Source of the DNA: Candidatus Tanganyikabacteria bacterium
Lineage (GTDB): Bacteria; Cyanobacteriota; Sericytochromatia; S15B-MN24; VGJW01
DNA: 34,334 bases
Assembly: GCA_016867235.1 (NCBI GenBank)
Contig: VGJY01000026.1
Span: 1 to 34,334, forward strand
Reading direction: 5' to 3'
Shown: positions 25 to 26,075 of the stretch, one piece after another
Layout of the letters: every line of letters starts with the position of its first letter
How positions within the stretch are numbered: position 1 is the stretch's first letter
Made by a program: the position numbers and the translations under genes
Notes under the pieces: model-generated
Database searches by the model: none
The model's input: only the letters and a program-made list of their open reading frames with translations
What the model was told of the DNA's origin: nothing

Positions 25-89
25 CGCGGCCGGCACGGAGGCCGGCCCCACCCGTTGCATCGGTGGCGCAGGCCTCCGTGCCTGCGTCC
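25..89. repeat. Palindromic intergenic repeat element
   Basis: Two arms of about 28 bases (25-52 and 62-89) are imperfect inverted copies around a 9-base loop. The core GGCACGGAGGCC in the left arm pairs with GGCCTCCGTGCC in the right, and CCACC/GGTGG closes the loop end. Transcribed, it would fold into a long GC-rich hairpin. It looks like a REP/MITE-like dispersed element of the kind found between genes in GC-rich genomes. No second copy is visible in this window, so its dispersed nature is inferred. It lies directly upstream of a 5'-truncated transporter gene. Confidence 0.6.
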
Positions 90-22856: not shown

Positions 22857-24199
22857 TCGCGCCGGAGCTTCTTGAACCGGGCGTTGTAGGGATCCTGCTC
22901 GGCCACCTCGATCCTGACTGGAATCTTGTATGCGGCCAGGCGGTCCTGGCAGTGGGCGCGGACTCGCCTCCTGAGTTCGGCCGGCGGTTCGGGTTCCAGG
23001 AGGTTCAGCCGGGCCGCGACCACCTGGCCCAGGAGCGCGTTCGGTTCGCCGTGGACCGTCGCGTCGCGGACGTTGGCGAGTTCCAGCAGGACGCTCTCGA
23101 CCTCACCTGGATAGACCTTCTGCCCGCCCACATTGATGATGTCGGTGGTGCGCCCGAGGATGCGCAGGAACTCGCCTTCCTGCTCCACGGCGTCCTGCGT
23201 GCAGAACCAGCCGTCGGCGTCGAAGGGGCTGGGCGCGTTGAGGTAGCCGAGCATTGCCGACCGCGCCTTGACCCACAGGATCCCGTCGACGACCTTCGTC
23301 TGGTAGCCCTCGCCGCCCACCCGCACCAGTAGCGAACCGGCTTCCTTGCTCTTGCTGCGCAGAATGCCCACCTCGGTGAGGCCGTACGTCTGGAGCAGGT
23401 CGACGCCGGGGAGCCGCTCGCGTAGGCGTTCCAGCGTCCGCGCCGGCATCACCTCGGTCCCGTAGGTGATGCGCACCAGGCTCGAGACGTCGTGGCGGTC
23501 GAAGGCGCCCGAGAGCAGCGCGAGGTTCAGGAAGCTGGGCGTGGTCGGCAAGAGTTGCACGCGGTGCCTCGCGACGGCCGCGAGGATTTCGTCGGGATCG
23601 CGGCCTGCGACGCTCACCACCGTGCCGCCGTTGGCCAGCGTGTAGAAGAGCGTGTTGAGGCCGCCGATGTGGTCGAGCAGCAGGAACGTCAGGGTGCACA
23701 TGCGGCTTCGCGGGCTCTCGAATTTCTCGAGCAAGACGTGGAGGTCGTGCAGGGCCGCCTTGTTCCGGCCGGTCGACCCCGACGTGAAGAGGATGAGCCC
23801 GGGATGTCCCCGCTCGCGAAGCGTGGCCAGCAGGGGATGGTCCCGGCCTGCGCCGGGCCGCCGCTCCATGGCCCATGCATCGTCTTCCGAGATGGTGACG
23901 GTGGCCGCGACCTGCGCGATCTCCAGGAACTCCTCGCGCTGCGCGCCGCCGAACGCCGCCGTCAAGGGCACGACGACGGCGCCGCGGTCCATGGCGGCCA
24001 GGAGGCAGCCGATTGCCGTCGACGTGAAATCGCCATCGATGGCGAGCACCTGGCCCCGGCCCACGCCGGCGCGGTCGAACTCGGTTCCCCAGGCGGCGAC
24101 GCGGTCGAGCAGCCCACCGTACGTGAGTACGCCGCCGCCGCGCACCAGCGCGGGCCGATCGGCATTCGCGACCATGCGGTCGAGCAACCAGCGCGGCAT
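22853..24199 (-). CDS. ANL-superfamily acyl-activating ligase (AMP-binding)
   Basis: This 448-residue adenylate-forming enzyme would activate a carboxylic acid with ATP and load it on a carrier. It has the P-loop ILFTSGSTGRNKAAL (136-150), LLQTYGLTEVG (A5), GYLNAPSPFDADGWFCTQDAV (split over A7) and ILGRTTDIINVGGQKVYP (hinge A8). A C-terminal FKKLRRD holds the likely catalytic Lys444. At under 450 residues it is shorter than acyl-CoA synthetases and similar in size to stand-alone ligases that load acyl carrier proteins. The start overlaps the SDR stop as TGATG, and an ACP gene begins the operon, so the ACP here is the probable acceptor. Substrate acid unknown. Confidence 0.85.
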   Translation of the reverse strand: MPRWLLDRMVANADRPALVRGGGVLTYGGLLDRVAAWGTEFDRAGVGRGQVLAIDGDFTSTAIGCLLAAMDRGAVVVPLTAAFGGAQREEFLEIAQVAATVTISEDDAWAMERRPGAGRDHPLLATLRERGHPGLILFTSGSTGRNKAALHDLHVLLEKFESPRSRMCTLTFLLLDHIGGLNTLFYTLANGGTVVSVAGRDPDEILAAVARHRVQLLPTTPSFLNLALLSGAFDRHDVSSLVRITYGTEVMPARTLERLRERLPGVDLLQTYGLTEVGILRSKSKEAGSLLVRVGGEGYQTKVVDGILWVKARSAMLGYLNAPSPFDADGWFCTQDAVEQEGEFLRILGRTTDIINVGGQKVYPGEVESVLLELANVRDATVHGEPNALLGQVVAARLNLLEPEPPAELRRRVRAHCQDRLAAYKIPVRIEVAEQDPYNARFKKLRRD

Positions 24200-24900
24200 C
24201 AGATTCCTCCCAGGTATACCACCTGGCCGGTCACGAAACCGCTGCGCGGGCTGGTGAAGAAGTCCACCACGTTTGCCACGTCCTCGAACGTCCCCTTGCG
24301 CGTGATGGCCTGGCGGGCGACCAGTGCGGCGATCTTTCCCTCCGGCACCCCGCGGATGAGGTCGGTATCGGTGGGCGCCGGTCCCACGACATTCACGGTG
24401 ATGCCCATGGGGCCGAGTTCCCGCGCCAGGATCCGTGTGAACGCCTCCACGGCGCTCTTTGACGCCGCGTAGACCGCCTCCCCTTCCAGCTTGAGCGGCA
24501 CGGCGACGGAGCCCAGGTTGACGATGCGGCCGTACTTGCGGCGCTGCATCACCTTCGCCGCTTCGCGACAGACCAGGAACGTACCGGTGAAGTTCGTGGC
24601 CATGACCCTCTCGACCTGGGCCAGGGGGGTCAGCAGGGTGTGGTTCATCGCGGCGAGTCCGGCGTTGTTGACCAGGATGTCCAGGCGGCGGTGCCGCCGT
24701 GCGATGGCCGCCAGCATCGCCCTGACGGCCGGCTCGTCCGTGACGTCTGCGAGATGGTGGGTGTACCGCGGATGGTCCCAGCCGGCGGGCTCCCGGGAGC
24801 AGCCTTCGACCAGCGCGCCGCGCTCCAGGAAATGCTCGGCCAGGTGCCGGCCGATACCCTTGCGAGAGCCGGTGATCAGGACGATTTCCGGATCAGCCAA
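24199..24900 (-). CDS. FabG-like short-chain dehydrogenase/reductase (probable 3-oxoacyl-ACP reductase)
   Basis: The 233-residue classical SDR has a cofactor loop TGSRKGIGRHLAE, LVNNAGLA, catalytic Ser in NLGSVAVPL and the pair Tyr-x3-Lys in YAASKSAVEAF. The C-terminal GFVTGQVVYLGG is standard for FabG-type reductases. The basic residues after the first glycine of the loop suggest NADPH. Between an ACP and an acyl-ACP ligase, reduction of a 3-ketoacyl-ACP, or of a keto acid bound to it, is the best guess. It overlaps the ACP gene by 8 bases and the ligase by one. A sugar or free alcohol substrate is the alternative. Confidence 0.86.
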   Translation of the reverse strand: MADPEIVLITGSRKGIGRHLAEHFLERGALVEGCSREPAGWDHPRYTHHLADVTDEPAVRAMLAAIARRHRRLDILVNNAGLAAMNHTLLTPLAQVERVMATNFTGTFLVCREAAKVMQRRKYGRIVNLGSVAVPLKLEGEAVYAASKSAVEAFTRILARELGPMGITVNVVGPAPTDTDLIRGVPEGKIAALVARQAITRKGTFEDVANVVDFFTSPRSGFVTGQVVYLGGI

Positions 24901-25192
24901 CCTGCGTTTTTTCGCTGACCCGTTCCCAGGCGTGCTCGGCCAGGCTGGAAACCGTCCGGAACGGGCTGCTTGCGGCCGACAGCGCGCGCCCGTCGGCGAG
25001 CGTCACATTGATGCCAAGGTCGGCCAGGCGCTGCTCGACGTCCACGATCAGCGTAACCAGAGCCAGGGAATCGAGTAGCGCTCCGGGCCCCAGGAGTACC
25101 GACTCCCGGTCCGCCACGTCCCCGCCGCCCCGCAAGTCCGAGAGGCAGGCATGCACGATGTCGAGAATCTTCGCCCGGTCCACGCCGGGCAT
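24893..25192 (-). CDS. Acyl carrier protein-like (phosphopantetheine attachment domain)
   Basis: The 99-residue protein is all helical by appearance and has the attachment motif LLDSLALVTLIVDVEQRL, in which Ser42 would carry 4'-phosphopantetheine. It is longer at both ends than FabC-type AcpP (about 78) and less acidic, resembling specialised carrier proteins of glycan or natural-product loci. It leads the operon with the ketoreductase and the acyl-activating ligase. ATG 25192 is annotated, with GGAG four bases upstream (short spacing). GTG 25183 is an alternative start lying 7 bases after a TATCAT box and would remove only three residues. Confidence 0.8.
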   Translation of the reverse strand: MPGVDRAKILDIVHACLSDLRGGGDVADRESVLLGPGALLDSLALVTLIVDVEQRLADLGINVTLADGRALSAASSPFRTVSSLAEHAWERVSEKTQVG

Positions 25193-25230
25193 GATACTCC
25201 ACGGGCGGGCCGGTCCGGCGGAGTATCATG
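25190..25230. promoter_or_regulatory. Perfect 11-bp inverted repeat forming a mirror-image divergent promoter
   Basis: CATGATACTCC (25190-25200) and GGAGTATCATG (25220-25230) are exact inverse copies around a 19-base centre. Each arm contains TATCAT reading outward. To the right, TATCAT (25224-25229) is followed by 6 bases and the ATG of the methyltransferase (25236). To the left, TATCAT (25196-25191) is followed by 7 bases and the GTG at 25183, codon 4 of the ACP gene. Each arm also contains GGAG next to an ATG. The whole 43-base divergent gap is occupied by this element. It could act as paired promoters, an operator, or both. Confidence 0.6.
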
Positions 25231-25235
25231 GCGCG

Positions 25236-26075
25236 ATGCAGGAAACCATTGTCGATTACTGGAACGTCCAGCCGCCCTTCAAGGCTTCCGTGGGCGACGA
25301 GGGCTCCCCGGAGTGGTACCGGAGCATCACCGATCATCGCCATCGCGTGGTGCCGTACCTGGCAGACTGGGCGCGGTTCAACGCGTATCGCGGAAAGCGC
25401 GTCCTCGAGATCGGCTGCGGGGCCGGGACCGACCTGGCCGAGTTCGCCCGCCACGGGGCCGACGTGACCGGCGTGGACATCACCGACGCCGCCGTCGAAC
25501 TGGCCAAGCGCCGCCTGGCGGTCGAGGGTCTATCCGGAAGAGTGCTCAAGTATCCCGGGAACCGGCTGCCCTTCGAGGCCGGCTCCTTCGACCTGGTGTA
25601 TTCGTGCGGCGTCCTGCACCACACGCCGTTCATGGACGATCTCCTGGCAGAGGCGCACCGCGTCCTGGTGCCGGGTGGCCAGCTGCGAATGATGCTTTAT
25701 CATCGCCGATCGCTGCTGTACTACTACTCGATCCTGTACCTGCGGCAGCACCGCGCCGGACGCCCCGACCTCGATCGCGAGGCGGTCCTGTCGAGGTACT
25801 CCGAGTTTCGGACTGGCTGCCCGTATACCCGGGTCTTCGCGCCAGAGGAGATGAGCGCCCGCCTCTGGTACTTCGACCGAGTCGAGACCGCGATCGACTA
25901 CCCGGTGTACGACACCGAAACCGACCGCAAGCTGCCGGCGACCGATCGGCCCGCGGTGGAGCCTACGGGCGTCCCGGACGTGGACGCCTTCTTCGCCGAA
26001 TTCGCTGCCGCGGCAGCGGCTGGCGAGGACCTGAGGCGCTTCGGGTGGCACCTGCTGGTGACCGCGACCCGGTAA
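25236..26075 (+). CDS. Class I SAM-dependent methyltransferase
   Basis: A 279-residue protein with a clear Methyltransf_11-type core: motif I RVLEIGCGAGTDLAEFARHG (55-74), acidic end of strand 2 in VTGVDITDAAVELAK, LPFEAGSFDLVYSCGVLHHT and EAHRVLVPGGQLRMMLYHR. About 100 residues follow the core, with tyrosine-rich sequence (LLYYYSILYLRQH) typical of methyltransferases found in surface-glycan loci. A sugar or lipid-linked acceptor is plausible but inferred. The ATG at 25236 fits the family N-terminus; an ATG at 25228 is in another frame. It is transcribed away from the ACP cassette through the inverted-repeat element. The stop is 8 bases from the convergent ferredoxin gene. Confidence 0.82.
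   Translation: MQETIVDYWNVQPPFKASVGDEGSPEWYRSITDHRHRVVPYLADWARFNAYRGKRVLEIGCGAGTDLAEFARHGADVTGVDITDAAVELAKRRLAVEGLSGRVLKYPGNRLPFEAGSFDLVYSCGVLHHTPFMDDLLAEAHRVLVPGGQLRMMLYHRRSLLYYYSILYLRQHRAGRPDLDREAVLSRYSEFRTGCPYTRVFAPEEMSARLWYFDRVETAIDYPVYDTETDRKLPATDRPAVEPTGVPDVDAFFAEFAAAAAAGEDLRRFGWHLLVTATR

What the first reader, a model, noticed from the sequence alone, without database searches (positions are those of the whole stretch)
25190..25230. Mirror-image divergent promoter in a perfect inverted repeat
The 11-base arms GGAGTATCATG face outward, each with a TATCAT box at the right distance to start an oppositely directed gene (ATG 25236 to the right, GTG 25183 to the left), and they fill the whole gap. 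Duplication of one promoter half, or selection for a symmetric operator, would explain the exact match. It would couple the acyl-carrier cassette to the methyltransferase.
Basis: partly seen in the sequence, partly recalled or inferred. Interest (0 to 1): 0.6.

Follow-up and report, generated by a model that had tools for sequence, protein, structure and literature searches.

The report
Divergent pair of leaderless promoters
Two neighbouring genes that point away from each other each seem to start at a tiny promoter box placed right before the start codon, and these two boxes happen to sit in an exact 11-base mirror repeat; the promoters are of an ordinary kind for this bacterium, and the exact mirror match is the only mildly unusual part.

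Summary
CATGATACTCC (25190-25200) and GGAGTATCATG (25220-25230) are perfect 11-base inverted arms, 19 bases apart, centred within half a base of the midpoint between GTG 25183 (acyl-carrier-like protein, left) and ATG 25236 (methyltransferase, right). GGAGTATCATG occurs nowhere else in the 6.12-Mb genome. In about 2 Mb of that genome TANNNT boxes pile up at -12/-13 before start codons, the signature of leaderless genes; both TATCAT boxes sit there, and homologous proteins support both start codons. Two back-to-back, -10-only leaderless promoters are the best reading. The arm identity exceeds what two unrelated promoters of this genome usually share (about 0.1% of pairs), but it is one post hoc case. 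Nothing shows a symmetric operator: no second copy in the genome or in 17 class relatives, no regulator recognised nearby. It is not a bidirectional promoter in the published sense: predicted starts are 53 bp apart, each with its own -10 box. The proposed comparative test cannot be run, because no searched genome carries both genes side by side. Coupling of the two genes is untested. Low interest; the excess symmetry is a modest curiosity.

The parts
25190..25200 (-). left arm, reads GGAGTATCATG on the minus strand; contains the -10 box for the leftward gene
25191..25196 (-). TATCAT, predicted -10 box, -13 relative to GTG 25183
   Evidence: position matches the TANNNT peak of this genome; 9 versus 4 control for TATCATN{6,7}GTG in this genome
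25201..25219 (.). 19-base G+C-rich spacer shared by both promoters; no -35-like hexamer in either direction, not itself symmetric
   Evidence: the leaderless set of this genome shows no -35 consensus either
25220..25230 (+). right arm GGAGTATCATG; contains the -10 box for the rightward gene
25224..25229 (+). TATCAT, predicted -10 box, -12 relative to ATG 25236
   Evidence: exactly at the genome's TANNNT peak; 15 versus 2 control for TATCATN{6,7}ATG in this genome
24893..25183 (-). acyl-carrier-like protein with an LDSLALVTLIVDVE motif, GTG start, predicted leaderless
   Evidence: homologue L021 and homologues from the same phylum align at this start; no Pfam or NCBIfam match
24199..24900 (-). 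short-chain dehydrogenase of the FabG kind
   Evidence: Pfam PF13561, PF00106
22853..24199 (-). AMP-binding acyl ligase
   Evidence: Pfam PF00501, PF13193; homologous cassettes in G063, G148, G154
25236..26075 (+). class I SAM-dependent methyltransferase, ATG start, predicted leaderless
   Evidence: Pfam PF08241; a homologue aligns from residue 2

Best explanation
The gap holds two separate divergent promoters placed back to back, each reduced to a -10 box (TATCAT) 6-7 bases before the start codon, so that transcription starts at or next to the GTG (25183) and the ATG (25236) and gives leaderless mRNAs. Their start points are about 53 bp apart, so two RNA polymerases would overlap upstream and probably could not load together: expected is mild mutual exclusion, not joint activation. 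The arms match beyond the -10 consensus (GGAG before, G after). That excess is most simply coincidence on top of shared promoter constraints, or past homogenisation of two similar facing promoters by template switching. Shown: the sequence, the positions of the boxes, the leaderless signature of the genome, support for the start codons. Inferred: promoter activity, start points, polymerase interference, origin of the symmetry.
For: TANNNT peaks at -12 (45 of 884 non-operon gene starts) and -13 (26), against roughly 5-12 at distant positions, in about 2 Mb of the same genome. The logo shows TAnnMT without a -35 element. TATCATN{6,7}ATG: 15 sites against 2 reversed controls in this genome, and enriched in most of the class. 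Both boxes sit at the right distance from start codons supported by homologues. TANNNT at about -12 as the mark of leaderless genes is published (PMC3160421) and was validated experimentally in Deinococcus (PMC12340547). GGAG at -16/-17 falls outside the main Shine-Dalgarno range of this genome (-15 to -9), so it is unlikely to be a ribosome site.
Against: No transcript data. The GTG-side pattern is only weakly enriched (9 against 4). Positions -4 to -1 relative to the box (GGAG) include an A at -2, rare among this genome's leaderless promoters (12%), yet both arms share it, which coincidence explains poorly: about 0.1% of promoter pairs match this long.
Confidence: 0.6

Rival explanations
1. 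A symmetric operator: a dimeric regulator, or two monomers, binds the two arms 30 bp apart, covers both -10 boxes and controls both genes together.
For: Exact identity over 11 bases, dyad centred within 0.5 base of the midpoint between the start codons; inverted repeats of 11 or more are in excess in noncoding DNA of this genome (118 in about 249 kb), so some are probably operators.
Against: No second copy of the spaced element, even with 3 mismatches, in the genome; none in 17 class relatives; the arm alone occurs only here; no regulator recognised among the window proteins scanned. A one-site regulon remains possible.
Confidence: 0.15
2. The arms became identical by a mutational route (template switching between two similar facing promoters, or inverted duplication of one half), with no function for the symmetry itself. 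This can be true together with the best explanation.
For: Arms end abruptly at both sides; homogenisation of imperfect inverted repeats by template switching is established, including in E. coli (PMC7202029, PMC8604942; titles and abstracts); the region can fold into a hairpin as single strand (-18.9 kcal/mol, z -2.7).
Against: No orthologous intergenic sequence is available to show the earlier state.
Confidence: 0.2
3. The repeat acts as an RNA hairpin in a longer leader that hides a start region, rather than as DNA.
For: A hairpin forms in the fold (DNA parameters); L037 of the same genome has a similar repeat that pairs over GGAGG and the ATG.
Against: It would need promoters further upstream on both strands, inside the opposite genes; GGAG is poorly placed for either start codon; the leaderless reading explains both sides more simply.
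Confidence: 0.05
4. The repeat is pure chance and at least one of the two promoters is not real.
For: Repeats of this size occur about once per 11 kb in this genome; the GTG-side pattern has a high background; the site was picked after the fact.
Against: Both boxes sit at the peak positions for start codons supported by homologues.
Confidence: 0.15

Closest known systems
Leaderless genes with a TANNNT box at about -12 (Deinococcus-Thermus, Actinobacteria; PMC12340547, PMC3160421)
   Same: -10 box 6-7 bases before the start codon, no -35 element, no leader for a ribosome site
   Different: here two such promoters face apart within a 52-base gap and sit in identical arms; activity not tested
Bidirectional promoters with a shared, symmetric -10 region (Warman, Grainger and co-workers; PMC12825309)
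   Same: divergent transcription predicted from one short region, likely polymerase clash
   Different: separate -10 boxes and start points about 53 bp apart, not 10, 18 or 23 bp either side of one shared box
Divergent genes controlled through a palindromic operator
   Same: inverted repeat between divergent genes, covering both promoters
   Different: no recognised regulator nearby, no other site in the genome, half-sites 30 bp apart

Membership tests
Leaderless (TANNNT) promoter | TANNNT starting about 12 bases before the start codon | tested here: met
   -12 for ATG 25236, -13 for GTG 25183; genome peak at -12/-13
Leaderless (TANNNT) promoter | mRNA 5' end at the start codon | not testable with these tools
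   needs 5'-end mapping
Leaderless (TANNNT) promoter | no properly spaced Shine-Dalgarno site | tested here: met
   GGAG at -16/-17; main genome range -15 to -9
Bidirectional promoter (shared -10 element) | start points on opposite strands either side of or within one shared -10 element, 10-23 bp apart | tested here: not met
   two separate TATCAT boxes 27 bp apart, predicted starts about 53 bp apart; definition from PMC12825309
Symmetric operator of a divergent regulator | regulator gene next to the site | tested here: not met
   neighbours are carrier protein, dehydrogenase, ligase, methyltransferase, ferredoxin, glycosyltransferase; a regulator elsewhere in the genome is not excluded
Symmetric operator of a divergent regulator | conserved site in orthologous loci | tested here: inconclusive
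   no genome searched has both genes together; the element is absent from 17 class relatives
Symmetric operator of a divergent regulator | protein binds the repeat | not testable with these tools
   needs a binding assay

The most novel reading that the evidence does not exclude
The exact mirror is under selection: two leaderless -10 promoters are built into one symmetric element that a single regulator, or mutually exclusive polymerases, reads as a switch between the carrier-protein cassette and the methyltransferase.
Probability: 0.08. Interest if true: 0.45.

Novelty: new member of a known kind. Interest (0 to 1): 0.2.

Why it matters
If the symmetry proved to be selected, it would be an economical divergent switch; as it stands it is one unreplicated example.

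Tried and rejected
Carrier-protein homologue from genome contigs: one hit only, without the methyltransferase. DNA similarity to plasmids: only short chance matches. Regulon search with the spaced arms: the first attempt used 21 instead of 19 spacer bases and missed the site itself; repeated correctly, only this site was found. Facing TATCAT pairs elsewhere in the class: few in the G+C-rich genomes; the seven inspected include a likely terminator, sites inside or between ordinary reading frames and a leadered gene, none clearly another mirror promoter pair. Sigma-70 scan: no -35/-10 pair at the site. Rfam: no match in the window.

Full report
What is there. The two arms are exact: CATGATACTCC at 25190-25200 and GGAGTATCATG at 25220-25230, with 19 bases between them. 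The centre of symmetry, 25210, lies half a base from the midpoint between GTG 25183 and ATG 25236. The repeat covers 41 of the 52 bases between the start codons. Outside the 11 bases identity stops at once on both sides; inside, the G+C-rich spacer is not symmetric.

Start codons. For the leftward gene an ATG at 25192 lies inside the left arm, but a homologue in L021 starts MNREKI and two from the same phylum (L154, L155) read MKREEV, matching MDRAKI from GTG 25183. For the rightward gene a homologue aligns from residue 2 of the product of ATG 25236.

Leaderless promoters. About 2 Mb of the same genome were read and genes were called with a simple codon model. TANNNT peaks sharply at -12 (45 of 884 gene starts not inside operons) and -13 (26), with roughly 5-12 at distant positions. 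The aligned set shows T-A-n-n-M-T and no -35 element. Over the whole genome TATCATN{6,7}ATG occurs 15 times against 2 for the reversed control, and most of the class shows the same excess; with GTG the figures are 9 against 4. The published mark of leaderless genes is a TANNNT box about 12 bases before the start codon (PMC3160421), validated experimentally in Deinococcus (PMC12340547). The boxes here sit at -12 and -13. GGAG lies at -16 and -17, outside the main Shine-Dalgarno range of this genome. That these are two leaderless promoters is an inference from position; no transcript was seen.

Is the symmetry more than chance? GGAGTATCATG occurs twice in 6.12 Mb, both here. A Markov model of the region gives a repeat this long in 0.2% of trials. 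Among putative leaderless promoters, 0.12% of pairs share 11 or more bases across the box. Only two other close divergent pairs with leaderless boxes on both sides were found in the sampled 2 Mb, so roughly nine are expected in the genome, and about 0.01 of them would match this well by coincidence. Against this, inverted repeats of 11 or more bases with a loop of 3-30 occur about once per 11 kb (177 in 1.95 Mb), and the site was chosen after inspection. The excess is suggestive, not established.

Operator or coupling. No second copy of the spaced element exists in the genome with up to 3 mismatches nor, exactly and with the outermost base pair left free, in 17 class relatives. No regulator was recognised among the window proteins scanned. 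The carrier protein, dehydrogenase and ligase form a cassette found in other genomes of the phylum (G063, G148, G154) without this methyltransferase within the stretches read, and no methyltransferase orthologue was found in the class.

How it most likely works. Two RNA polymerases would each use their own -10 box and start at the respective start codon. Because the start points are only about 53 bp apart, their upstream footprints overlap, so simultaneous loading is unlikely; this is expected to give mild mutual exclusion (inference). Bidirectional promoters as defined by Warman and co-workers share one -10 region with starts 10-23 bp apart, which is not the case here. The origin of the identical arms remains open: coincidence, template-switch homogenisation (a known process) or selection for symmetry.

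Verdict. Real feature, ordinary promoter type, mildly unusual symmetry, coupling unproven.

Noticed in passing
L042:4364-4391 (same genome): Two divergent genes with predicted leaderless boxes overlapping in GTGTATATAAT, start codons 27 bp apart: looks closer to a true shared-box bidirectional promoter than the finding itself.
   Followed up: partly
L037:3243-3281 (same genome): Inverted repeat ATGACACCTCC / GGAGGTGTCAT whose right arm holds the ribosome site and start of a gene; could hide the start in an RNA hairpin.
   Followed up: partly
L134:11440-11477 (same genome): 15-base perfect inverted repeat TGTAATACGAAAATC between divergent genes, A+T-rich in a G+C-rich genome; operator-like.
   Followed up: no
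window 4642 and 26413 (minus strand): Two further genes of this window have TATCAT at the leaderless position; four such genes within 34 kb is more than the genome-wide rate (24 sites in 6.12 Mb) would suggest.
   Followed up: no
window 24893-25183: Acyl-carrier-like protein with a clear DSL motif but no Pfam or NCBIfam match, in a cassette with a dehydrogenase and a ligase that recurs in other genomes of the phylum.
   Followed up: partly
window 32-82: 12-base inverted repeat with arm GGCACGGAGGCC near the contig end; the same arm occurs in L074 around 6594, so it may belong to a repeated element.
   Followed up: no
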